Assembly: GCA_017432615.1 (NCBI GenBank)
Contig: JAFRIV010000017.1
Coordinates: forward strand, 1-64,000
Reading direction: 5' to 3'
Length of the DNA stretch: 64,000 bases
DNA from: Oscillospiraceae bacterium
Lineage (GTDB): Bacteria; Bacillota; Clostridia; Oscillospirales; Oscillospiraceae
Within the stretch, counting starts at the first letter, position 1. Every line of letters begins with the position of its first letter. The notes beneath the pieces were generated by a model. It ran no database searches. It was not told the origin of the DNA and worked only from the letters and a program-made list of their open reading frames with translations. The translations under genes and the position numbers were made by a program. Positions 8,630 to 26,256 of this stretch are shown here, piece by piece.

Positions 8630-8658
8630 TTGACAAACATCGTCTTTTGGCGTAAAAT
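8630..8658 (+). promoter_or_regulatory. Promoter of the glutamine synthetase III operon
   Basis: TTGACA (8630-8635) and TAAAAT (8653-8658) are 17 nt apart. A second TTGACA overlaps upstream at 8623. The expected start near 8665 puts the leader hairpin at 8671 at the very 5' end of the RNA. Confidence 0.85.
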
Positions 8659-8670
8659 GCTTGCCATTAA

Positions 8671-8720
8671 GAGACATTGGCGTCTCGCGGTTTTCCGCAC
8701 GCCAGTGTCTTTTTTTATTT
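8671..8720 (+). promoter_or_regulatory. Attenuator with ANTAR-like hexaloop hairpin in the GSIII leader
   Basis: Two structures that exclude each other are seen. One is the hairpin GAGAC-ATTGGC-GTCTC (8671-8686), whose six-base loop has A1 and G4. The other is a terminator pairing 8672-8683 with 8699-8710 (12 bp, one wobble), followed by seven T. Forming the small hairpin removes the left arm of the terminator. The same 16-nt hairpin, with one loop base changed, opens the glmS leader. ANTAR proteins are known to bind paired hairpins with A1/G4 hexaloops; only one such hairpin is clear here. Control by the ANTAR protein at 22425-23009 is inferred. Confidence 0.75.
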
Positions 8721-8742: not shown

Positions 8743-10821
8743 ATGAAGAGTACAGTGGATTGCTTCGCAAGCAGAGTTTTTGATGATAAGGTTATGCGGG
8801 AAAGGCTTCCGGGCGAAGTCTATCAGGCTCTTCAGCAGACGATCAACGATGGGGCAGCGTTGAACCCGCAGCTTGCCGACACGGTGGCAAAGGCAATGTG
8901 TGCCTGGGCAATCGAAAACGGGGCGACGCATTTTACCCACTGGTTTCAGCCTCTTACGGGAATCACAGCGGAAAAACATGACAGCTTTATCAGCCCATCT
9001 CCGGATGGACGCGTGATTATGGAGTTTTCCGGAAAAGAGCTGATCAAAGGCGAGCCGGATGCTTCCTCTTTTCCGTCCGGCGGTCTTCGCGCAACATTTG
9101 AAGCAAGAGGTTATACTGCATGGGATCCGTCCAGCTTTGCTTTTATCAAAGACCGCGTTCTCTGCATCCCGACGGCGTTCTGCTCCTACAGCGGCGAGGC
9201 GCTTGACAAAAAGACACCGCTGCTGCGAAGCATGGAAGCGCTGAACCGGCAGGCACTGCGTATTTTGAAACTCTTCGGCAATCAGGACGTCCGCCATGTG
9301 AGCACGAACGTAGGGCCGGAACAGGAATATTTTTTAATCGACAGGGAACTCTACCGACAGAGGCGGGATCTGGTCTACACAGGAAGGACATTATTCGGGG
9401 CACGGCCGCCGAAAGGTCAGGAACTGGACGACCACTATTTCGGTGCAATTACTCCTCGGGTACAGGCATATATGGAGGAGTTGAATGAAGAGCTCTGGAA
9501 GCTCGGCATTTTCGCCAAGACGGAGCATAATGAAGTCGCACCGGCACAGCATGAACTGGCCTGTATTTACCGCACTGCCAATGCAGCCACCGACAATAAC
9601 CAGCTTGTCATGGAAATTATGAAGAAAGTGGCAGAAAAACACGGACTGGTGTGTCTGCTGCATGAAAAACCCTTCGCCGGGATCAACGGCAGCGGAAAGC
9701 ACAATAACTGGTCGCTTTCGACAGATACCGGGATCAACCTGCTTTCTCCCGGGGATACACCGCAGGACAATGCACAGTTTCTGCTGTTTCTGCTGGCGGT
9801 TATTGAAGGAGTGGATGAATATCAGGATCTGCTTCGCCTCAGTGTGGCTTCGGCAGCGAATGATCACCGGCTTGGAGCAAATGAAGCACCTCCTGCCGTT
9901 ATCTCTGTTTTTCTGGGGGAGGAACTTACGGAAGTGATCTATGCCCTGGAGACAGACAGCGAATATGTCGGATCAGAGAGAAGCCCCATGAAACTGGGGG
10001 TGGATATTCTCCCTGTTTTCCCGAAGGACACCACAGACCGCAACCGCACGTCCCCCTTCGCATTTACGGGGAACAAGTTTGAATTCAGGATGGTGGGTTC
10101 CAGCGATTCCATTGCCTGCCCGAATATTATGCTCAATGCGGCGGTGGCAGAATCTCTCCGCAGATTTGCCGATACCCTGGAAGGCGTAAAAGACTTTGAT
10201 CAACGTCTTCACGCGCTCATGAGAGAAACGATCACTTCTCACAAACGCATCATCTTCAACGGGAACGGATATGATGATGCCTGGATCCGGGAAGCGACAG
10301 TGAAGCGGGGGCTCTTGAACCTGCGTACTACCCCGGATGCGCTGCCAAGGCTCCTGGAGGAGAAGAATATCAGGATGCTGATTCGGCACGGCATTTTTAC
10401 AGAAGCGGAACTGCACTCAAGACTGGAGACACAGCTGGAAAACTATGTGCATACAGTTGAAATCGAAGCGCGGACGATGTCAGAAATGGCATGGAAGGAG
10501 ATCCTGCCTGCAATTTCGGCATACACAGCTTCTCTTGCCGCAGGGAGAGGTGGAAAAGAAACGGCAGACAGTTGTGAAGGACGCCTGATCAAAAAGCTAT
10601 CTGCACTGGAAGAACAAGTCATGGACCGGCTGGAGATGCTGGATGCGGCAATCGACGAGACAGAAAGCTTCCGGGAACTGATTTACAGTGCAGCTTATGT
10701 AAGAGATAAACTTCTGCCATGCATGGCATCTCTGCGGGAAAGCTGTGACAGAGCGGAAAAAATAACAGCTTCCGAATATTGGCCTTTCCCGACTTATGGG
10801 GAACTGCTTTTTGGAATATAG
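8743..10821 (+). CDS. glnA: Glutamine synthetase type III
   Basis: ATP-dependent amidation of glutamate to glutamine, the entry point for ammonia. The 692-residue length and the motifs [26 protein letters not shown] and [14 protein letters not shown] identify the GSIII family (GlnN), about 250 residues longer than GSI. The ATG at 8743 has the RBS CAGGAG. An upstream GTG/ATG extension in frame would run through the terminator stem and is rejected. It heads an operon with asnB, a sugar amidotransferase-like gene and pyrG, all users of its product or of ammonia. Expression probably depends on read-through of the 8671-8720 attenuator. A second synthetase of type I is at 23033-24241. Confidence 0.96.
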
Positions 10822-10854: not shown

Positions 10855-12438
10855 ATGTGTTCCATTATGGGTTTCACAAAATGGGATCTGACACCGGAGG
10901 AAACACATGTATACTTCGACAGGACAAAATCCCGCGGGCCTGACAGCACCCGCATCGAACGCGCAGGAGAAGGAAGCCTGTGCTTTCATCGCCTCAGCAT
11001 CATGGGGCTGGAAGAAAGCGGGATGCAGCCGTTTCATCTGGGGAAGAACAGCTGCGTGTGCAACGGGGAGCTGTATCTGTTTCGCCTGCTGAAAAAGGAA
11101 CTGGAGGAGAAGGGATACGTATTCCAGAGCGGGTCAGACTGTGAAATCATTCTGCCGTTATACCGGGAGTACGGATTAGATCTGTTTGCCAGACTGGACA
11201 GTGAATTTGCCATGGTGATCTACGACGGAGAGAAAGACGCTTTTATTGCCGCACGCGACCCCATCGGGATCCGCCCTCTGTTCTATGGATATGACTCAAA
11301 AGGTTCCATTATTTTTGCCAGTGAAGCAAAGAACCTGATTGGCCTGTGCGAAGAAGTCAGCCCCTTTCCGCCCGGACATTACTGGGCGGACGGAAAGTTT
11401 GTCCGCTATGCAGATCTTACAACAGTTGAAAAAACGATCGATGGAGATCTGGATTCCATCTGTGCCGGGATTCGGGAGAAGCTGATCCTTGGAGTGGATA
11501 AACGCCTGGATGCGGATGCTCCTCTGGGATTCCTCCTCTCCGGCGGGCTGGATTCCAGCCTGGTGTGCGCGATTTCAGCAAAGCTTTTAGGGAAAAAGGT
11601 GCGTACCTTTGCCATCGGGATGGATCTCGACGCCATTGATCTGAAATATGCCCGTATGGTAGCAGATTATATCGGGGCGGAGCATACGGAAGTGTTTATG
11701 ACCAGGCAGCAGGTGCTGGATTCTCTGGAAGAGGTTATCGCCATGCTGGGGACCTGGGATATTACGACCATTCGTGCCAGTATGGGGATGTATCTCTGCT
11801 GCAAAGCTATTCATGAACAGACGGATATCCGCGTACTGATGACAGGAGAGATCAGCGATGAATTGTTTGGCTACAAATATACGGATTTTGCCCCCTCTGC
11901 CGAAGAATTTCAGAGAGAGGCGAAAAAACGCGTAGACGAATTATATATGTATGATGTGCTGCGGGCGGATCGCTGCATTTCCGTAAACTCTCTGGAGGCA
12001 CGGGTTCCGTTTGGCGATCTGGAATTTGTAAAATATGTCATGGCTATCGATCCCGCACTGAAGATGAACACTTACGGCATGGGAAAATATCTGCTTCGCC
12101 ATGCCTTTGAGAAGGATGCTCTCCTGCCGGAGGAGATCCTTTGGCGTCAGAAAGCAGCTTTTTCCGATGCGGTGGGGCATTCCATGGTGGATGATCTCAA
12201 GGCTTACGCTGAAAGCTGCTATACCGATGAAGCGTATGAACAGAAACGCCGGAAGTATTCTTACTGTATGCCCTTTACCAAGGAAAGCCTGTTATATCGC
12301 GAAATCTTTGAAAAATACTATCCGGGGCAGGCAAAAATGATCGTGGATTACTGGATGCCGAACAAAGCCTGGGAAGGCTGCAACGTCAATGACCCTTCGG
12401 CCCGGGTGCTTTCCAACTATGGGGCAAGCGGAAAATAG
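10855..12438 (+). CDS. asnB: Asparagine synthetase, glutamine-hydrolysing
   Basis: Makes asparagine from aspartate, ATP and glutamine. The ATG at 10855 places Cys at position 2, the nucleophile of the class II amidotransferase domain, so the start is fixed. RGPDS and the N-terminal glutaminase are followed by the synthetase domain with PP-loop SGGLDSS near residue 229. Length (527) is close to E. coli AsnB. It lies 33 nt after GSIII and 18 nt before the next gene, so it is in the glutamine operon. Confidence 0.95.
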   Translation: MCSIMGFTKWDLTPEETHVYFDRTKSRGPDSTRIERAGEGSLCFHRLSIMGLEESGMQPFHLGKNSCVCNGELYLFRLLKKELEEKGYVFQSGSDCEIILPLYREYGLDLFARLDSEFAMVIYDGEKDAFIAARDPIGIRPLFYGYDSKGSIIFASEAKNLIGLCEEVSPFPPGHYWADGKFVRYADLTTVEKTIDGDLDSICAGIREKLILGVDKRLDADAPLGFLLSGGLDSSLVCAISAKLLGKKVRTFAIGMDLDAIDLKYARMVADYIGAEHTEVFMTRQQVLDSLEEVIAMLGTWDITTIRASMGMYLCCKAIHEQTDIRVLMTGEISDELFGYKYTDFAPSAEEFQREAKKRVDELYMYDVLRADRCISVNSLEARVPFGDLEFVKYVMAIDPALKMNTYGMGKYLLRHAFEKDALLPEEILWRQKAAFSDAVGHSMVDDLKAYAESCYTDEAYEQKRRKYSYCMPFTKESLLYREIFEKYYPGQAKMIVDYWMPNKAWEGCNVNDPSARVLSNYGASGK

Positions 12439-12456
12439 AGATTGGAGGAAAGGAAA

Positions 12457-13572
12457 GTGCAATACTGTAAAAAATGTGTGATGCCGGATACCAGACCGGG
12501 AATCTCCTTTAACGAAGAGGGAATCTGTTCCGGGTGCCAGTCCTACGAAAAGAGAAACCAGATCGACTGGGATTCCCGCTTTCGGGAGTTGGAGGCAATC
12601 TGCGACAAATATCGCGGATGCAACGGAGACGGATATGACTGTGCAATCGCCGTCTCCGGCGGAAAGGATTCTCATTACCAGGTTTACCTGATGAAAGAAG
12701 TGCTGCGGATGAATCCGATCCTCTTCAGTGTGGAAGACAACTTTCCCATGACGGAGGCGGGCAAACACAACATTCGCAATATCTCAGAGGTATTCGGCTG
12801 CTCTATCATCAGCATGAAACCGGATATCTGTGCCCAGAAAAAGCTGATGCGCTACATGTTTGAGGCCTATGGAAAACCGACCTGGTATATTGACCGCCTG
12901 ATTTATACCTATCCGCTTTTGATGGCGGCACAGTTCCACACACCGCTTCTCGTTTACGGGGAAAACGTGAGCTATGAATACGGCGGAGAAGGCTATGAAG
13001 AAACGTACTCTGCCAGGAACCAGATCGATAACGGAGTCGCGGCGGGGGTTGATGAACAGGAACTGATCGAAAAGGCAGGAGTTACAGCGAAAGACCTGTA
13101 TCTCACACGGGCACCGGCCAAAGAGATCCTGGATCAACTCGACCCGATCTATATCTCTTACTTTGTCCCCTGGAACAGCGTGGAGCATGCTGTGTTTGCC
13201 AGAAGCCGCGGGTTTCATGATCTGACTCATGAATGGAAACGCACGCAATGCGTGGAGGACTTTGACCAGGTCGATTCCCGCGCCTATCTGGTGCACCCCT
13301 GGCTCAAATATCCAAAGTTCGGGCATTCCAGCGCAACAGACTATGCCTCGCGATTCGTGCGTTACGGCCTTATCAGCCGGGAAGAGGCGGTACAGCTTGT
13401 GCGCGAACATGACGCGGTCCTCGACCCGTTGTGTATTCGGGATTTCTGCGAATTCTGCGGGTATTCCGAGGCGGAATTCTGGAACATAGCGGATCGTTTT
13501 TACAACCCGGAGCTTTTCCGGAAAAATAATCTCGGAGAATGGGTGCTCAGACATCCGGTCTGGGAGGAATAA
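12457..13572 (+). CDS. N-acetyl sugar amidotransferase-like PP-loop protein (WbpG/PseA family)
   Basis: The protein has a Zn-ribbon-like pair of CxxC motifs (YCKKCVMPDTR and CSGCQSY), then an ATP-binding PP-loop SGGKDSHYQ, and WNSVEHA further on. These place it in the family that turns a sugar acetamido group into an acetamidino group in glycan pathways. The start is taken as GTG 12457, with GGAGG 8 nt before; the in-frame TTG at 12442 would include that RBS. Members usually sit with HisH/HisF-like partners that supply ammonia. None is here; the neighbours are asnB (18 nt) and pyrG (3 nt). The substrate may therefore differ. Family assignment is good, function open. Confidence 0.75.
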   Translation: MQYCKKCVMPDTRPGISFNEEGICSGCQSYEKRNQIDWDSRFRELEAICDKYRGCNGDGYDCAIAVSGGKDSHYQVYLMKEVLRMNPILFSVEDNFPMTEAGKHNIRNISEVFGCSIISMKPDICAQKKLMRYMFEAYGKPTWYIDRLIYTYPLLMAAQFHTPLLVYGENVSYEYGGEGYEETYSARNQIDNGVAAGVDEQELIEKAGVTAKDLYLTRAPAKEILDQLDPIYISYFVPWNSVEHAVFARSRGFHDLTHEWKRTQCVEDFDQVDSRAYLVHPWLKYPKFGHSSATDYASRFVRYGLISREEAVQLVREHDAVLDPLCIRDFCEFCGYSEAEFWNIADRFYNPELFRKNNLGEWVLRHPVWEE

Positions 13573-13575
13573 TCC

Positions 13576-15171
13576 ATGGCTAAATATGTGTTTGTGACCG
13601 GCGGTGTCGTATCCGGCCTGGGAAAAGGAATCACAGCGGCTTCCCTCGGCCGGCTGCTGAAAAGCCGCGGTTTGAAGGTCGCAGCGCAGAAGCTTGATCC
13701 TTACATCAACGTTGATCCCGGGACGATGAGCCCCTACCAGCACGGGGAAGTATACGTCACGGAGGATGGCAGTGAGACAGACCTGGATCTCGGGCACTAT
13801 GAACGCTTCATTAATGAAGATCTGAACCGTTATTCCAATCTTACTACCGGCAAGGTGTACTGGAATGTCCTGAATAAAGAACGGCGGGGTGAATATCTCG
13901 GGCAGACCGTGCAGATCATTCCACACATTACGCAGGAGATCAAGGATTTTATCTACCATGTGGGCAAGGAGACAAACGCAGACGTTGTTATCACGGAGAT
14001 CGGCGGCACAACGGGGGATATCGAAAGCCAGCCGTTTCTTGAAGCTGCCCGACAGGTCAGCCTTGAACAGGGACGGGAAAATACGCTGTTCATTCACGTT
14101 ACTCTTGTTCCTTTTCTGAGGGGCAGTGACGAGCATAAAACCAAACCTACACAGCACTCCGTCAAGGAACTGCAGGGAATGGGCATTGCTCCGAATATAA
14201 TTGTTCTGCGATGTGATGAACCATTGGAACCGGAGATTTTCCATAAAATTGCCATGTTTTGCAATGTCAAACCCGACTGCGTGATTGAAAACCGGACACT
14301 GCCATTGCTTTATGAGGCACCACTGATGCTGGAGGACAAGGACTTTTCCCTGATCGTCTGCCGAGAACTCGAATTGTGGACACGCGCCCCACAGCTGGAT
14401 GAATGGCGGGCTATGGTAGCACGTATCAAATCGATGGATCGCAGTGTGACGATCGGCCTTGTCGGGAAATATGTGCAGCTGCATGATGCCTATCTCTCTG
14501 TTGCCGAGGCACTGAGGCATGCCGGTTATTCATGCGGCGCACAGGTAGATATCCGTTGGATCAACAGCGAGACCATCACGAAAGAAACAGTCCAAGAGGA
14601 CCTTGCCGGCTGCGACGGGATCATTATCCCCGGAGGATTTGGGGAGCGCGGAGTAGAAGGGATGATTGTGACAGCACAATACGCCAGGGAGCATGACATC
14701 CCGTATCTTGGCATCTGCCTCGGGATGCAGGTAGCGGTGATCGAGTTTGCACGGCATGTATGCGGCCTCGCGGATGCCAGCTCCAGAGAATTTGATCCGG
14801 ACTCGCCCTACAAAGTCATTGACTTTCTGCCCAATCAGAATGAAAGTATCAGGAAGGGCGGAACGCTTCGGCTGGGCGCGTATCCCTGCTGTATTGCAGC
14901 AGAAACGGTAATGCGCCGATGCTACGACAGAGAGGAAATTCGGGAGCGCCATCGACATCGTTATGAATTCAGCAATGCTTTTCGTGATATAATGACGGAA
15001 AACGGATTATGCTTATGCGGACAGTCCCCTGACGGCTATATTGTAGAGGCTGTGGAACTCAGCGAGAAACGGTTTTTCATTGGGGTACAGTTTCACCCGG
15101 AATTCAAGAGCCGCCCTAACCATCCGCATCCACTGTTTGTGGGGCTGATCAGGGCATCTCTGGAAAGCTGA
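13576..15171 (+). CDS. pyrG: CTP synthase
   Basis: Converts UTP to CTP with glutamine or ammonia and ATP. The synthase domain begins [16 protein letters not shown], with the P-loop and [16 protein letters not shown]. The class I glutaminase domain has the nucleophile Cys381 in GICLGMQ and the His-Glu pair in FHPEFKSRP. Length (531) is normal. The ATG is 3 nt after the previous stop, with the RBS GGGAGGA inside that gene's end. It is the last intact gene of the glutamine operon and is followed immediately by a guaA remnant. Confidence 0.97.
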
Positions 15172-21098: not shown

Positions 21099-22268
21099 TC
21101 ACGGCAACTGTGAAACTACATCAACCAGCTTTGCTGAGACAGACTGCCCGTCAGAAGAGAAGGAGATGATGGCTGCACCTTTCATCGGCGTACCGGACTC
21201 ATCCAGGGAGAAAGTCCCTGTAACGCATTCATATACAGCCGAGGTATCGGCAAGGGCATCCCGAACAGCTTCTGCATCAACAGCCCCGGCAGCCTCAATG
21301 GCTGCTTTGTACATATAAACACAGTCATATCCGGTGGCACCGAATGCACTGGGAATAGAACCATATTTTTCCTCATAGGCTTTTACAAAAGAACTGACAA
21401 TTTCGGAAGTGTCACTGGGATCGTAATGGTTTGTCCAGTATACATCGTTGAAGGCTGTCAGGTCGGCACCGGCCACCACATAGTCCGGCGTGGTGTCATA
21501 GCCGTCAGCACCCATGATAATGCCGAGATACCCGGCTGCACGTGCCTGGGGTACCACATACGGGCCGACGACGTCATAATAATAGGGGGCATAAACAAAA
21601 TCGACCCCGGCGTTGACCATCGCGTTAAACTGGTTGGTATAGTCCTGAACATCCAGGGATGCCGTCGATTGTTCGGCTGCAACCTCAATGCCGTACGCTG
21701 CACAGGCTTTGGAGAAGGAATCAAACAGACCTTTGGAGTAGACGTCTGCAGCGCAATAGACAACGCCAACTCTTTCAAAACCTGCCTGTTTGGCATAAGC
21801 TGCAGCAATAGCCCCTTGAAAACTGTCTGCATAGCAGGCACGGAAAATATAGTCGTCCTCCGTGGTGAGCGAATCAGCCGTGGCAGTAGGGGATAAAATA
21901 CAGACTTCCTCTTCGTTAGCCGCATCTGTGATAGCAGAAGTACAACCGGATGTGGCAGAACCTACAATCAGCTGAACGCCCTTTGCTACCAGAGAGTTAA
22001 AGGCATTGAGACATTCCGTGGGGTCGCTCTGGTCATCGGTGTGGATCAGTTCGACCTGTCGGCCAAGGATCCCGCCGGCGGCATTGATTTCTTCTACGGC
22101 GAGATCTGCCCCAGTGGAGATCCCGATGCCGTAAGCTGCCAAAGCACCGGTATTCGGAGAAATAACGCCGATTACAATGGCATCATCTGCTGCCCAGACG
22201 CCGGTTCCAGACAAGGTGAAAACAAAGATGAACGCAAGAACGAGAAAAATAAGGTTACGTTTTTTCAT
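21099..22268 (-). CDS. livJ: Branched-chain amino acid binding protein LivJ
   Basis: Extracellular receptor of the LIV transporter, type I periplasmic binding fold. The ATG at 22268 (MKKRNLIFLVLAFIFVF) has the RBS AAAGGAG; an in-frame ATG further up would translate the leader terminator. The signal peptide ends at about residue 27 (GVWA-ADD). The mature part starts IVIGVISPNTGALAAYGI, as in LivJ/AmiC proteins, and GSATSGCTSAI belongs to the ligand cleft. There is no lipobox cysteine, unusual for a Gram-positive binding protein. 389 residues. Ligand specificity is inferred from the family. Confidence 0.9.
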   Translation of the reverse strand: MKKRNLIFLVLAFIFVFTLSGTGVWAADDAIVIGVISPNTGALAAYGIGISTGADLAVEEINAAGGILGRQVELIHTDDQSDPTECLNAFNSLVAKGVQLIVGSATSGCTSAITDAANEEEVCILSPTATADSLTTEDDYIFRACYADSFQGAIAAAYAKQAGFERVGVVYCAADVYSKGLFDSFSKACAAYGIEVAAEQSTASLDVQDYTNQFNAMVNAGVDFVYAPYYYDVVGPYVVPQARAAGYLGIIMGADGYDTTPDYVVAGADLTAFNDVYWTNHYDPSDTSEIVSSFVKAYEEKYGSIPSAFGATGYDCVYMYKAAIEAAGAVDAEAVRDALADTSAVYECVTGTFSLDESGTPMKGAAIISFSSDGQSVSAKLVDVVSQLP

Positions 22269-22285: not shown

Positions 22286-22332
22286 CGAAAAATAGGCAAA
22301 GGCGCCGTGCTGGAAAGCACGGCGCCTTTGCC
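22286..22332 (-). terminator. Terminator-like hairpin in the liv operon leader
   Basis: A perfect 17-bp stem (22295-22311 with 22316-22332), tetraloop and TATTTTT lie between the liv promoter and the livJ RBS. It looks like an attenuator, yet no competing antiterminator hairpin could be seen. Alternatively it could end transcripts arriving from the ANTAR gene. Confidence 0.75.
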
Positions 22333-22344
22333 GTTTGTGAGTGC

Positions 22345-22373
22345 ATTATATCGCTTTGTTACAGGGAAGTCAA
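22345..22373 (-). promoter_or_regulatory. Promoter of the liv operon
   Basis: Minus strand TTGACT (22368-22373) and a consensus TATAAT (22345-22350) are 17 nt apart, placing the start just before the leader hairpin. Confidence 0.85.
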
Positions 22374-22424: not shown

Positions 22425-23009
22425 TTACTCAAATTGGCAGAGAATTCGCTGTGCAGCTTCCCTCTTGGAGATCCGTTCATCCATGGCGCGCTTTTCTACA
22501 CAACGATGGGCTTCTTCCTCCGTCATACTCTGCTTCTCAATCAGCAACCATTTGGCGCGGTTTACAAGGCGTAGCTCTGTGATCTGTTCTTCTACCTTCT
22601 GCTGCTTTTCAATAAAACGCAGCAGCCTTTCTCTTTCTGCGCAAAGCATCTGTAAACTCTGCGTGATCAGAAGGGAAGAGGTAGGTTTGGCAATCACTGC
22701 CAGCCCGTGCAGGGTAGCCTCGGCGGTGACTTCTTCCAGCAACTCGTTCTTTACAAAAAGGATTACACCGGCAGACGTTTTTTCACAACAATCAAAAGCA
22801 AACTGTGTACCGAATTCATCCTTCAGCGGTGCATTGATAAGGATCAGGTCATATTCCCGCTCCGGCAGAGATCGCCGTGCCGCTCCGCAATTGGCTACGG
22901 AGTCGACAGGCCAGTAATCGGTTCCGGGTAACTGTTGACGGATTGCTTCACAGAATTTCTCCGAGGAAGAAACCAGCAGCACGGCGTAGGTCCTCTCCTG
23001 AAAGACCAT
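22425..23009 (-). CDS. ANTAR-domain RNA-binding antiterminator with degenerate receiver
   Basis: The 194-residue protein has a receiver-like domain (1-120), a coiled coil (about 122-150) and an ANTAR domain (about 150-190: RAKWLLIEKQSMTEEEAHRCVEKRAMDERISKREAAQ is read in pieces as the AxxxLxxxxgmsEeeAh pattern). ANTAR domains bind leader RNA hairpins and prevent termination. In the receiver the acidic pair is Ser-Ser (VSSSEK) and the phosphoacceptor is Asn59 (ILINAPL), though Lys108 remains, so classical phosphorylation is unlikely. It starts 23 nt after a type I glutamine synthetase gene, a pairing known from clostridial nitrogen control. Likely targets are the hairpins at 8671 and 26202. 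Confidence 0.88.
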   Translation of the reverse strand: MVFQERTYAVLLVSSSEKFCEAIRQQLPGTDYWPVDSVANCGAARRSLPEREYDLILINAPLKDEFGTQFAFDCCEKTSAGVILFVKNELLEEVTAEATLHGLAVIAKPTSSLLITQSLQMLCAERERLLRFIEKQQKVEEQITELRLVNRAKWLLIEKQSMTEEEAHRCVEKRAMDERISKREAAQRILCQFE

Positions 23010-23032: not shown

Positions 23033-24241
23033 TTAGGAACAGAAAGCGGAAAGAATGGCCCGGGGTAAATGCGCATGCACGAAATCGCTTTTTTGGGCCG
23101 CGAGAACGGCTTCCTCCCGCGTTTTCGGCAGTGCACGGTAGATGGAAAGCTGTGCTTCGCTGGCAGTATAGAGATTCAATTCTTCACTTTTTGGTAAGAG
23201 GAGGCGGTTTTCAATACCGTAAAGACCTGCTTCGATCAGCAGAGCAAAGGCCAGGTAAGGATTTGCCATAGAATCGGCAGAGCGCAATTCAGCACGTCGT
23301 GTCTCAGGGACTGCCGCCGGTATGCGGATCATCTGGGAACGGTTCTCTTCTCCCCAACTGATATAGCCCGGGGCTTTGCGGCTTCCCAAACGCTGATAGG
23401 AAGCATCCGTCGGGTTTAGGAAAATGGTAAAATCATAGATCTTTTCCAGAATTCCGGCTATCACAAAGGGTAACAGATCACGCCCGTCTTCACTTTTTAC
23501 AGAAAGATTGATGTGAAGCCCGTTGCCGGGTTCCGTCGGGAGTGGTTTGGGGGAGAAATCAGCGCAGAGCCCGTTCCGTGCCACAATAGTTTCCACGACG
23601 CTGCGGAATGTTATGGCATTATCGGCAGCGGAAACGGCATCGGAATATCGGAAATCGATTTCATTCTGGCCGGGTCCTTCCTCATGATGGGAGCATTCCG
23701 GATGGATGCCCATCTGTTCCAGCGTCAGACAGATTTCCCGACGAATATTTTCCCCTTTATCGAGGGGAAAAACGTCCATATAGTGGGCATGATCGTATGG
23801 AATCTTTGTCGGTTCGCCGTCTTCATCCGTTTTGAAGAGATAAAACTCCATTTCCGAGCCAAAAAAGAAACGGATACCGCGCGATTCTGCCGCCTTTACG
23901 CAACTGCGCAGCAACTCCCTGGCATCGGCATCAATTGTTTCGCCGTTCGGATGAGCGACACGGCAGAGCATCCGGACAACCTTTCCGTTCGCACTGCGCC
24001 AAGGCAGGCCGGACAGGGTGCTTGCATAAGGGTGCAGATATAAATCGGAACGTACCCCATCGCAAAACCCTGCAATGGCAGACCCGTCAATTGCGATGCC
24101 GGAAGTGAAGGCACGTTCCAGCTCAGACGGCTGAATGGCTATATTTTTCTGCCTTCCATATACGTCGCAAAAGGCCAGACGAATAAACTGAACATTTTCC
24201 TGCTCCACATACTGCAACACTTCCTGCTCTATTTCTTTCAT
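23033..24241 (-). CDS. glnA: Glutamine synthetase type I family protein
   Basis: The 402-residue protein has GSI motifs: DGSAIAGF, metal site GSEMEFYLF, HHEEGPGQNEIDF, NGLHINLS and NPTDASYQRLGSRKAPGYISWGEENRS. It is about 40 residues shorter than usual GSI, with shorter loops, but the catalytic motifs are present. It should make glutamine from glutamate and ammonia; a role as a sensor or in a related gamma-glutamyl reaction is possible because a full GSIII is also present. It shares an operon with the ANTAR gene. Confidence 0.88.
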   Translation of the reverse strand: MKEIEQEVLQYVEQENVQFIRLAFCDVYGRQKNIAIQPSELERAFTSGIAIDGSAIAGFCDGVRSDLYLHPYASTLSGLPWRSANGKVVRMLCRVAHPNGETIDADARELLRSCVKAAESRGIRFFFGSEMEFYLFKTDEDGEPTKIPYDHAHYMDVFPLDKGENIRREICLTLEQMGIHPECSHHEEGPGQNEIDFRYSDAVSAADNAITFRSVVETIVARNGLCADFSPKPLPTEPGNGLHINLSVKSEDGRDLLPFVIAGILEKIYDFTIFLNPTDASYQRLGSRKAPGYISWGEENRSQMIRIPAAVPETRRAELRSADSMANPYLAFALLIEAGLYGIENRLLLPKSEELNLYTASEAQLSIYRALPKTREEAVLAAQKSDFVHAHLPRAILSAFCS

Positions 24242-24308: not shown

Positions 24309-26132
24309 TTACTCCACTGTGACGGATTTGGCCAGATTTTTGGGTTTGTCAATGTCGCAATTGTGTGCTTTCGCTGCATAATATGCCAACAGCTGTAGAG
24401 GAACAACAGCAAGAATCGGAGAAAAAATCGTCGAGATACGGGGTATGAAGATCACATCATCAGCCTGTGAGATAATTCTGCTGTTTCCGTGAAAAGCCAG
24501 CGCAAGCACTTTTGCCCCGCGCGCCTTTACCTCTACGACATTGCTGAGCGTTTTATCTGCCAACGCTTCATTGCAGCACACTGCTATGACGGGCTGGCCG
24601 TTCTCAATCAGCGCGATGGTGCCATGTTTTAATTCTCCGGCAGCGTATGATTCTGCGTGCAGATAGGAGATCTCCTTCATTTTCAGGGCGCCTTCCAGAG
24701 CAACCGCGTAATCCGTGTTACGCCCGATGAAGAACAGAGAGCGGCTGGAATAACGGCGGGACAGTGTGGGAAGCTGGTAATTCATATCAATGGACTGCTG
24801 AATATATTTAGGGACCTGTTTCAACTCCCAAAGGAGAGAGGAATAGACTTCCGGTGAGATAGAACGCAGCTTCTCGGCAAAAGAAAGGGCTATTAAATAC
24901 AGAACGGCAAGCTGAGTGGTAAACCCTTTCGTGGTGGCAACAGCTATTTCCGGACCTGCGCGGGTATACAGGGTATAATCCGCCAGATTTGCAATCGTAC
25001 TGCCTACCACGTTTACGATGCCGATGATCGTTGCGCCTCTTGCCCTGCATTCTTTCAGAGCGGCGATGGAATCGGCTGTTTCTCCGGACTGTGAGATCAC
25101 AAGAACCAGCGTGTGTGTATCCACCAGAGGGTCTGCATAACGCAATTCGCTGGCCAGTTCTACCTCAACCGGAAGATGACAGAGCTTTTCAATGGCATAG
25201 CGGCCGGAGCAGCCGGCATAATAAGCCGAACCGCATGCTGTGATTATGATCTTGTGAAACGAACGGAGAATTTCTGCAGGCAGTTCAAAATCATCAAGAC
25301 GGATCTTCTCACCCTGGATCCGGGAAGTGAGGGCTGCTTTCACAGCTGCCGGCTGCTCCATGATCTCTTTGAGCATAAAATGTTCATAACCACCCTTCTC
25401 TGCGGCTTCCACATTCCAGGTCACGCGGCTGATCGGCTTTGTGATTTCTTTCCCGGTACAGTCATATACTGTCACGTGATCCGGGGTAAGGCAGGCTATT
25501 TCACCGTCTTCCAAATAGATCACATTTTTGGTAAGAGAAATCAGTGCGGTAACATCAGAGGAAAAATACTGTTCTCCCACTCCAATGCCCAGGATCAGCG
25601 GACTTGCCTCCCTCACTGCAAATAAGGTATCCGGGGCATCAGTGCATAAAATGCCGAGCGCATAGGAACCTTCCAGCCGGGAGGCAGTTTTCATAACGGC
25701 GGCTTTGATATCGCCGGTATAGTATTTTTCCAAGAGGTGAACGATTACTTCCGTGTCAGTCTCACTATGAAAAATGTAATCCTCCGCAATCAGTTCCTCC
25801 CGCAATGCCAGATAATTTTCAATGATACCATTGTGCACAACGGCAAAGCGACCATCGTTGGATAGATGAGGATGCGCATTGAAATCGGTAGGCGCACCAT
25901 GAGTCGCCCAACGGGTGTGGCCAATGCCGATTGTTCCGGGGACAGTTTTTCCGCCCTCTGTTTTTTCATAGAGTTTGGCAATTCGCCCGCTGACTTTTTC
26001 AATATGAATAGCGTTGCCGTTCAGAACAGCAATGCCGGCCGAGTCATATCCTCGGTACTCCAGCCTGCTCAGTCCGTTCAACAAAACGGGAGCAGCCGGA
26101 TGCATACCGGTAAACCCGGTTATTCCGCACAT
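24309..26132 (-). CDS. glmS: Glutamine--fructose-6-phosphate aminotransferase
   Basis: Makes glucosamine-6-phosphate from fructose-6-phosphate and glutamine, the first step to UDP-GlcNAc and the cell wall. Cys2 (MCGITGF) is the glutaminase nucleophile, which fixes the start at 26132. The glutaminase domain (1-240) has HTRWATHG; two SIS domains follow (TACGSAYYAG, SQSGETADS) and the C-terminus is DKPKNLAKSVTVE. 607 residues. The leader has an attenuator instead of the glmS ribozyme found in many Firmicutes. Confidence 0.97.
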   Translation of the reverse strand: MCGITGFTGMHPAAPVLLNGLSRLEYRGYDSAGIAVLNGNAIHIEKVSGRIAKLYEKTEGGKTVPGTIGIGHTRWATHGAPTDFNAHPHLSNDGRFAVVHNGIIENYLALREELIAEDYIFHSETDTEVIVHLLEKYYTGDIKAAVMKTASRLEGSYALGILCTDAPDTLFAVREASPLILGIGVGEQYFSSDVTALISLTKNVIYLEDGEIACLTPDHVTVYDCTGKEITKPISRVTWNVEAAEKGGYEHFMLKEIMEQPAAVKAALTSRIQGEKIRLDDFELPAEILRSFHKIIITACGSAYYAGCSGRYAIEKLCHLPVEVELASELRYADPLVDTHTLVLVISQSGETADSIAALKECRARGATIIGIVNVVGSTIANLADYTLYTRAGPEIAVATTKGFTTQLAVLYLIALSFAEKLRSISPEVYSSLLWELKQVPKYIQQSIDMNYQLPTLSRRYSSRSLFFIGRNTDYAVALEGALKMKEISYLHAESYAAGELKHGTIALIENGQPVIAVCCNEALADKTLSNVVEVKARGAKVLALAFHGNSRIISQADDVIFIPRISTIFSPILAVVPLQLLAYYAAKAHNCDIDKPKNLAKSVTVE

Positions 26133-26159: not shown

Positions 26160-26217
26160 AAAAAAAAGAGACGCTGACGCAAAGCTGACAGATTCAGCCC
26201 TGAGACGCCAGTGTCTC
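26160..26217 (-). promoter_or_regulatory. Attenuator with ANTAR-like hexaloop hairpin in the glmS leader
   Basis: The transcript begins with the hairpin GAGAC-ACTGGC-GTCTC (26202-26217), a six-base loop with A1 and G4, and a sixth U-A pair below. Its left side can instead pair with 26168-26180 to form a terminator of about 12 bp followed by seven T. A second small stem (GCTGA/TCAGC) lies between. The hairpin matches that of the GSIII leader at 15 of 16 bases. Confidence 0.75.
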
Positions 26218-26227
26218 ACAGGTTGGA

Positions 26228-26256
26228 AGTATAACCTTCTTTTCGGATAATGTCAA
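26228..26256 (-). promoter_or_regulatory. Promoter of glmS
   Basis: Minus strand TTGACA (26251-26256) and TATACT (26228-26233) are 17 nt apart; the attenuator hairpin begins 10 nt after the -10 box. Confidence 0.85.

What the first reader, a model, noticed from the sequence alone, without database searches (positions are those of the whole stretch)
26160..26217. glmS leader repeats the same hairpin-terminator switch; no glmS ribozyme seen
Seen: GAGAC-ACTGGC-GTCTC begins 10 nt after a consensus promoter and differs from the GSIII hairpin by one loop base. It likewise overlaps a terminator with seven T. Known: in many Firmicutes glmS is controlled by a self-cleaving ribozyme. Here the leader is only about 90 nt and has no room for that fold. 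Inferred: glmS, a major glutamine consumer, has been placed in a glutamine-linked antitermination regulon.
Basis: partly seen in the sequence, partly recalled or inferred. Interest (0 to 1): 0.82.

Follow-up and report, generated by a model that had tools for sequence, protein, structure and literature searches.

The report
Single-hairpin ANTAR switch before glmS
In a bacterium that appears to belong to the Clostridia, the cell-wall-sugar gene glmS and two nearby nitrogen operons begin with the same small RNA hairpin overlapping a transcription terminator, and an ANTAR-family protein encoded beside glmS is predicted to stabilise that hairpin so that the terminator cannot form, which would tie cell-wall sugar synthesis to the glutamine supply.

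Summary
The glmS hairpin (26217-26202, minus) and the GSIII hairpin (8671-8686, plus) bear the marks of ANTAR target RNA: a six-base loop with A1 and G4, closed by C-G, overlapping an intrinsic terminator. A third copy precedes a transporter gene (22334-22319). A detector found these three and, in 200 shuffles, none with a promoter. The only ANTAR gene detected in the assembly lies in the glmS cluster: glmS, GSI, ANTAR. In 99 related genomes the element (E<=1e-4) is in 40 of 47 with an ANTAR match and 1 of 52 without. In relatives it precedes glutamine synthetases, gltB, amtB and amidotransferase genes (pyrG, asnB, guaA, purF, wbuX). Unusual: described ANTAR sites have two hairpins; here one sits 5-15 nt after the -10 box, and none of 109 elements has a second hexaloop in between. 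No glmS ribozyme was detected in this genome; in 18 of 61 same-genus genomes the ribozyme heads nagB operons, in none glmS. Best reading: a single-hairpin ANTAR antitermination regulon. Protein binding, direction and signal are untested.

The parts
26228..26256 (-). glmS promoter, TTGACA-17-TATACT (11 of 12)
26201..26218 (-). ANTAR-type hexaloop hairpin of the glmS leader, tgagac-ACTGGC-gtctca
   Evidence: 16-nt core alone -5.2 kcal/mol
26160..26217 (-). competing terminator: 26217-26206 pairs with 26179-26168, then 8 T (26167-26160)
   Evidence: MFE -28, z -3.96
24309..26132 (-). glmS (glutamine--fructose-6-phosphate transaminase)
   Evidence: TIGR01135, 774 bits over cut-off 418
23033..24241 (-). 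short type I glutamine synthetase (GSI), 402 aa, RKAP where the aligned synthetases have YEAP
   Evidence: (below the GlnA equivalog cut-off)
22425..23009 (-). ANTAR protein with pseudo-receiver (P0001)
22345..22373 (-). promoter of the transporter operon, TTGACT-17-TATAAT
22319..22334 (-). third hexaloop hairpin, acggc-AAAGGC-gccgt
22295..22332 (-). competing terminator of the third element
   Evidence: (MFE -36.6, z -8.61)
21099..22268 (-). substrate-binding protein, first gene of a branched-chain-type ABC transporter gene set (to 17490)
8630..8658 (+). GSIII promoter, TTGACA-17-TAAAAT
8671..8686 (+). hexaloop hairpin of the GSIII leader, gagac-ATTGGC-gtctc
8669..8716 (+). competing terminator with 7 T
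   Evidence: MFE -28.4, z -8.49
8743..10821 (+). type III glutamine synthetase
   Evidence: GSIII_N
10855..12438 (+). asnB, asparagine synthase (glutamine-hydrolysing)
12442..13572 (+). WbuX, N-acetyl sugar amidotransferase
13576..15171 (+). pyrG, CTP synthase (glutamine-hydrolysing)

Best explanation
The glmS leader carries an ANTAR-type six-base-loop hairpin that cannot coexist with the overlapping terminator, and it is likely a single-hairpin antitermination switch worked by the ANTAR protein encoded two genes downstream. Shown by sequence: promoter, then after about 10 nt the hairpin (loop A1, G4, C-G closing pair), then a terminator that re-uses the hairpin's own strand; the same design before GSIII-asnB-wbuX-pyrG and before the transporter genes; glmS, GSI and ANTAR genes in a row. 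Inferred: without the protein the terminator forms and transcription stops before glmS; when nitrogen or glutamine is short the ANTAR protein binds the hexaloop as it leaves the polymerase, blocks the terminator and lets the glutamine-making and glutamine-using operons be read. Because ANTAR lies behind the glmS leader it would activate its own operon. Its receiver domain lacks the phosphate-accepting Asp, so the signal probably comes from a partner protein; the adjacent GSI (next listed gene to ANTAR in 38 of 40 loci) is the first candidate, in the manner of AmiC-AmiR or NasS-NasT (AmiC-AmiR recalled; NasS-NasT from a search listing).
For: (1) Loop identity without circularity: in a scan that fixed only promoter, stem and competing terminator, loops of length 4, 5, 6, 7, 8, 9 gave 28, 1, 74, 2, 2, 2 elements; 71 of the 74 hexaloops have A1 and G4, 74 of 74 have G4. 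The C-G closing pair is in 77 of 77 aligned rows and is also what SELEX on NasR selected (passages of PMC7496416). (2) Stem: 98.2% of cells paired against at most 45.2% in slid controls; 4 of 5 pairs changed on both sides (pairing was also a selection rule). (3) One ANTAR gene detected in the assembly, in the glmS cluster. (4) Co-occurrence over 99 genomes: 40 of 47 with an ANTAR match, 1 of 52 without, have the element at E<=1e-4; leaving out genomes whose loci built the model, 22 of 29 against 1 of 52. (5) Genes behind the elements are mostly of nitrogen metabolism. (6) glmS belongs: directly behind an element in G000, in L040 (G054) and, with one stem mismatch, in L235 (G031); inside gene clusters whose head gene carries an element in 15 more of the 40 loci.
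Against: No protein-RNA or expression data. In the best-studied system (eutP) removing the first hairpin abolishes induction and changing the linker hurts (PMC3369931 passages), and NasR binds a lone hairpin about 12-fold more weakly (PMC7496416 passages), so one hairpin might not suffice. Seven of 47 ANTAR genomes lack an element at E<=1e-4 and one genome without a detected ANTAR gene (G020, 72% complete) has one (the search over 99 genomes used stricter filters). Nine glmS genes in same-genus genomes without a detected ANTAR gene also follow GSIII, so glmS-GSIII linkage does not need the switch. Of EutV's RNA-contacting residues, Lys149, Glu160, Met172 and Arg175 align with the same residue here, but Arg142, Tyr164, Arg168, Asn173 and Arg177 align with Leu, His, Glu, Asp and Ser (my reading against passages). 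E-values from model R1 are rough.
Confidence: 0.8

Rival explanations
1. It is a classical two-hairpin ANTAR site whose other hairpin was missed, because transcription starts further upstream or the second hairpin lies downstream.
For: The characterised ANTAR antitermination sites described in the passages I saw have P1 and P2 (PMC3369931 and PMC7496416).
Against: 0 of 109 elements have a second hexaloop (stem>=3) between -10 and hairpin, 0 of 109 one with stem>=4 in the 48 nt upstream, 3 of 109 one downstream; 1 of 109 has a 3-bp one within 20 nt upstream. No pair with stems>=4 in the 89 loci L037-L125 (no positive control was run).
Confidence: 0.08
2. An ordinary attenuator: strong terminators before highly expressed genes, with the small hairpin a by-product of the terminator's inverted repeats.
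For: Any terminator with internal repeats can form alternative hairpins.
Against: Loop length and loop bases are nearly fixed although neither is needed for a terminator; the element tracks ANTAR genes.
Confidence: 0.05
3. A metabolite-sensing leader (riboswitch or ribozyme) with this hairpin as its expression platform.
For: Many of the genes served share one metabolite, glutamine.
Against: No Rfam match at gathering score in the window and only unrelated sub-threshold ones at the glmS leader; the RNA before the hairpin is predicted to be a few nt, leaving no aptamer there.
Confidence: 0.03
4. A single-hexaloop element bound by ANTAR, but not for antitermination: binding favours termination, or the RNAs only titrate the protein.
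For: A sponge RNA with ANTAR motifs is known (EutX/rli55, in passages of PMC8934654).
Against: The hairpin excludes the terminator, the geometry of antitermination, and the elements lie at the start of operons.
Confidence: 0.04

Closest known systems
EutV / eut leaders of Enterococcus faecalis (ANTAR two-hairpin antitermination)
   Same: hexaloop with A1 and G4, hairpin mutually exclusive with an intrinsic terminator, ANTAR protein with receiver-type N-terminus
   Different: eut sites need P1 and P2 with a set linker; here one hairpin at the predicted start of the RNA; EutV is activated at Asp54, which aligns with Asn here
NasR-nasF (Klebsiella) and AmiR-amiE (Pseudomonas)
   Same: A1/G4 hexaloop and terminator, C-G closing pair for NasR; AmiR has His where EutV has Tyr164, as here
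   Different: two-hairpin motifs; NasR answers to nitrate or nitrite; no glutamine-amidotransferase targets in the passages seen
NitR of solventogenic clostridia and Clo1313_2030 of C. thermocellum
   Same: ANTAR gene in a cluster with glutamine synthetase and GOGAT genes (Clo1313_2030-2036; passages of PMC4676874; the glnA-nitR layout of other clostridia is recalled)
   Different: their RNA targets were not examined here; no glmS, pyrG or purine targets in the passages seen
Nitrogen-gene ANTAR hits of the 2012 survey
   Same: ANTAR motifs upstream of ammonium transporters, PII, glutamate and glutamine synthesis genes (passages of PMC3369931)
   Different: that survey searched for the dual hairpin; its supplementary hit lists could not be read here
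glmS ribozyme (RF00234)
   Same: another leader-RNA control of glmS in Firmicutes
   Different: not detected at this glmS or elsewhere in this assembly; metabolite-driven cleavage rather than protein-driven antitermination

Membership tests
ANTAR target RNA (two-hairpin antiterminator, Ramesh 2012) | hexanucleotide loop with A at 1 and G at 4 | tested here: met
   the three window hairpins; 71 of 74 in the loop-blind scan
ANTAR target RNA (two-hairpin antiterminator, Ramesh 2012) | two such hairpins with a short linker | tested here: not met
ANTAR target RNA (two-hairpin antiterminator, Ramesh 2012) | hairpin mutually exclusive with an intrinsic terminator | tested here: met
ANTAR target RNA (two-hairpin antiterminator, Ramesh 2012) | ANTAR gene in the genome | tested here: met
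ANTAR target RNA (two-hairpin antiterminator, Ramesh 2012) | bound by an ANTAR protein | not testable with these tools
   needs EMSA or in vitro transcription
ANTAR response regulator | ANTAR domain | tested here: met
   PF03861, 46.6 bits over cut-off 27.3
ANTAR response regulator | receiver with phosphate-accepting Asp | tested here: not met
   Response_reg 25.9 bits, below its cut-off 30.2; EutV Asp54 aligns with Asn; Asn in 10 of 11 orthologues read in frame, Asp in L103; a twelfth row was out of frame
glmS ribozyme RF00234 | covariance-model match upstream of glmS | tested here: not met

The most novel reading that the evidence does not exclude
A clade-wide, single-hexaloop ANTAR regulon in Clostridia binds together glutamine synthesis and a broad set of glutamine-using amidotransferases, with a variant glutamine synthetase (GSI) as the sensor that frees or holds the antiterminator; in taking over glmS it displaced the glmS ribozyme, which in the same genus now guards the ammonia-using nagB-glmM-glmU route to the same sugar.
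Probability: 0.35. Interest if true: 0.88.

Novelty: new variant of a known kind. Interest (0 to 1): 0.76.

Why it matters
The 2022 EutV-RNA structure paper names one hexaloop as the minimal ANTAR binding site but keeps the two-hairpin requirement for antitermination, and asks for bioinformatic work on how far single hexaloops matter (passages of PMC8934654). Here is a natural set of 147 distinct candidate single-hexaloop elements, selected for a promoter and a competing terminator, that makes the question testable with short RNAs and one protein. It would also put peptidoglycan-precursor synthesis (GlmS), CTP synthesis and, in some relatives, purine synthesis under the same antiterminator as glutamine synthetase, instead of under the end-product ribozyme.

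Tried and rejected
Exact pattern search in relatives found nothing outside G000 (1 of 149 genomes, G000 itself), because the stem varies between genes and species; structure-aware search was needed. Rfam at permissive E-value gave only unrelated sub-threshold hits at the glmS leader. Of 62 model hits at E<=10 in G000 three have E<1e-3; the fourth (0.005, before a P-loop ATPase gene) is left open, and hits 5-8 (L130-L133) showed no element by the stricter detector. Of 45 loci given to, 11 showed none by that detector (L130-L133, L186, L193, L195, L196, L209, L213, L214); the model's own alignments show hexaloop hairpins in L186 (loop G1), L193, L195, L209, L213 and L214 (L186, L195 and L214 with one unpaired stem position), not in L196. 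Element counts: 121 detections were merged to 115 by shared T run, and six more were dropped as spurious or identical, leaving 109; one of the 109 (L074:2466-2555) is read in the wrong register, and the L060 transporter leader, a likely true site by eye, was among those dropped. Of 47 glmS leaders looked at, two passed the relaxed rule (G059, G022), both with imperfect stems and not counted as elements; R1 scored G022 at 21.8 bits and did not find G059; G031 was seen by eye and confirmed by R1. For the GSI flap, 30 of 39 rows matched the search motif and all 30 had Lys; 9 rows did not match it and were not read by eye. One row of the ANTAR alignment (L008) was out of frame and dropped. Whether ribozyme placement before nagB is in print: two searches, listings only, nothing seen in titles or abstract starts. 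Whether ANTAR control of glmS or of amidotransferases is in print: listings only, plus passages of PMC3369931, PMC8934654, PMC7496416 and PMC4676874; nothing found; the library is partial and supplements could not be read. Structure prediction was not run.

Full report
What is there. On the minus strand a promoter TTGACA-17-TATACT (26256-26228) is followed after 10 nt by GAGAC-ACTGGC-GTCTC (26217-26202); this hairpin's 5' arm and loop (26217-26206) also pair with 26179-26168 just before eight T. glmS starts at 26132. The GSIII leader (8630-8716) has the same plan, one loop base different. A third, which the finding does not mention, heads the transporter genes: TTGACT-17-TATAAT, acggc-AAAGGC-gccgt at 22334-22319, terminator 22332-22295. 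A detector asking for stem>=5, loop ANNGNN, a T run and a terminator that re-uses the hairpin found exactly these three in 64 kb; 200 shuffles gave a mean of 0.01 and none with a promoter. Hairpins alone fold at -5.2 to -6.9 kcal/mol, leaders at -28 to -36.6, so the terminator is the predicted default fold.

What it is. Hexaloop, A1 and G4 are the marks of RNA bound by ANTAR proteins, and a C-G closing pair was selected by NasR (passages of PMC3369931 and PMC7496416). The assembly has one ANTAR match, in the window: 22425-23009, directly behind GSI and glmS. No terminator-like site was reported between glmS, GSI and ANTAR on that strand, only a 9/12 promoter-like match inside the end of glmS, so one operon is likely. 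The GSIII gene set codes for GSIII, AsnB, an N-acetyl sugar amidotransferase (WbuX) and CTP synthase: three amidotransferases behind a glutamine maker.

Relatives. Matches to the ANTAR protein are in 73 of 149 genomes, G000 included. In 40 loci around them (L037-L076) GSI is the next listed gene before ANTAR in 38, and GSIII, asnB, pyrG and glmS cluster around the pair. glmS is in the cluster in 16 of 40 (L076, with a distant glmS, not counted): directly behind an element in L040, behind GSIII or GSIII-asnB in nine (in L050 with about 2.5 kb between), at the end of GSI-ANTAR-pyrG-glmS in six; the head gene carries an element in all 16 by the rules (the first, stricter scan, missed L045 and L051). 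Co-transcription is inferred.

Test of the loop. Fixing only promoter, stem and competing terminator over the window and 73 loci, loop lengths 4-9 gave 28, 1, 74, 2, 2, 2 elements; of the 12 four-base cases printed, several are hexaloops with a further pair. Of 74 hexaloops, 71 are A1 and G4, 74 G4, 74 purine at 5. The rows are related, so these are not independent events. The 77-row alignment A1 gives five stem pairs, 98.2% of cells paired, pair types changing on both sides in four; slid controls reach at most 45.2%. Pairing was a selection rule, so this describes variety rather than proves the stem.

Genome-wide. Model R1 gives three hits below E=1e-3 in G000, the three above. In 99 genomes, 62 have a match at E<=0.01 (stricter filters, a limited number of candidates scored per genome). 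At E<=1e-4, 41 have one: 40 of the 47 with an ANTAR match, 1 of 52 without (Fisher P 2.8e-19; leaving out genomes whose loci built the model, 22 of 29 against 1 of 52, P 8.6e-13). Of 147 distinct elements the assigned downstream gene was GSIII 58, a class-II amidotransferase-domain protein of about 365 aa 23, pyrG 19, GSI 10, ammonium transporter 10, asnB 4, gltB 4, transporter binding protein 4, glmS 2, purA 2, WbuX 2, PPDK-domain protein 2, purB-like, guaA, purF, dapF and a P-loop ATPase 1 each, unassigned 2 (families). Many loci were chosen around ANTAR, which inflates the GS counts. Further model hits precede carA (L193, some distance downstream and possibly not the first gene), asnA (L213), another 365-aa-type amidotransferase (L209), an aminotransferase (L186) and a gene without family match (L195).

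One hairpin, not two. In 109 elements the -10 box ends 5-15 nt (median 9) before the hairpin, so the RNA upstream of it is predicted to be a few nt; 0 of 109 have a hexaloop between -10 and hairpin, 0 of 109 one with stem>=4 in the 48 nt upstream, 3 of 109 one with stem>=3 downstream, 1 of 109 a 3-bp one within 20 nt upstream. No two-hairpin motif with stems>=4 was found in 89 loci (no positive control was run). Published work holds two hairpins necessary for antitermination in eut (PMC3369931), while the structure paper names a single hexaloop as the minimal binding site and leaves its role open (PMC8934654). This is the respect in which the case is new. By the two-hairpin definition it is not a member; it works like one.

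The protein. P0001 aligns with EutV, AmiR and Rv1626. The Asp54 position of EutV is Asn; so it is in 10 of 11 orthologues read in frame. Of EutV's RNA contacts Lys149, Glu160, Met172 and Arg175 are kept; Tyr164 is His, as in AmiR, and Arg142, Arg168, Asn173 and Arg177 differ (my reading against residue numbers). A partner protein as signal source is therefore likelier than phosphorylation. GSI is the candidate: it keeps the GxExEF and HHE motifs but has RKAP where the two synthetases shown have YEAP, with Lys in all 30 rows that matched the motif, of 39 read. That this Glu matters for ammonium handling and glutamine feedback is recalled, not from a call.

The ribozyme. RF00234 matches in 29 of 99 genomes, none in G000. 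By coordinates, 10 lie directly upstream of glmS, all in other families of the order (G098, G100-G102, G111, G113, G116, G122, G124, G127). In the window's genus 18 of 61 genomes have it (17 over the family cut-off, G044 just under), and in all 18 a nagB-type gene follows on the same strand, within about 130 nt in 13 and after about 720-770 nt in five; none lies upstream of a glmS. In L222 the intervening gene is GlmU-acetyltransferase-like and the gene after nagB is glmM; the same glmM-like start is seen by eye in 6 of 12 same-genus stretches. So the ribozyme there heads an amino-sugar synthesis operon in which NagB stands where GlmS would (that NagB can run from ammonia is recalled). One match (G107) is at neither. 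G000 has a nagB (77% identity) with no ribozyme match in the 1 kb upstream.

Limits. Several glmS genes in ANTAR-bearing relatives are unlinked and have no element (for example G012, G018, G030, G042, G097, G121), so the placement varies. In nine same-genus genomes without an ANTAR match glmS still follows GSIII. No experiment was available; direction, signal and the role of GSI are inferences.

Noticed in passing
L218-L226, L228-L230 (same-genus genomes G027, G039, G054, G060, G051, G026, G035, G033, G017, G004, G021, G034): glmS ribozyme (RF00234) heads nagB operons, with glmM and a GlmU-acetyltransferase-like gene in L222, instead of glmS; 18 of 61 same-genus genomes by coordinates.
   Followed up: partly
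window 23033-24241 (-) and GSI of L037-L075: GSI beside ANTAR is short and has Lys where the aligned synthetases have Glu (RKAP for YEAP), in 30 of 30 rows with the motif, 39 rows read.
   Followed up: partly
G000:C1:80897-80991 (L129, L282): Weak fourth element (E 0.005): gcgac-AAGGAA-gttgc with promoter and terminator before a 235-aa P-loop ATPase gene.
   Followed up: partly
L064, L069, L074 (GSIII leaders), L111 (amtB leader): Two hexaloop-plus-terminator units in tandem before one gene, each apparently with its own terminator.
   Followed up: no
L231, L238-L244, L277: glmS directly follows GSIII in nine same-genus genomes where no ANTAR gene was detected.
   Followed up: partly
L110 and L111: Records titled Treponema and Alistipes MAG carry the element and an ANTAR relative; either transfer or mis-binning.
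   Followed up: no
L100, L213: The ammonia-using asparagine synthetase asnA follows an element in L213, and an AsnA-like gene does in L100 by eye, so the regulon is not limited to glutamine-using enzymes.
   Followed up: partly
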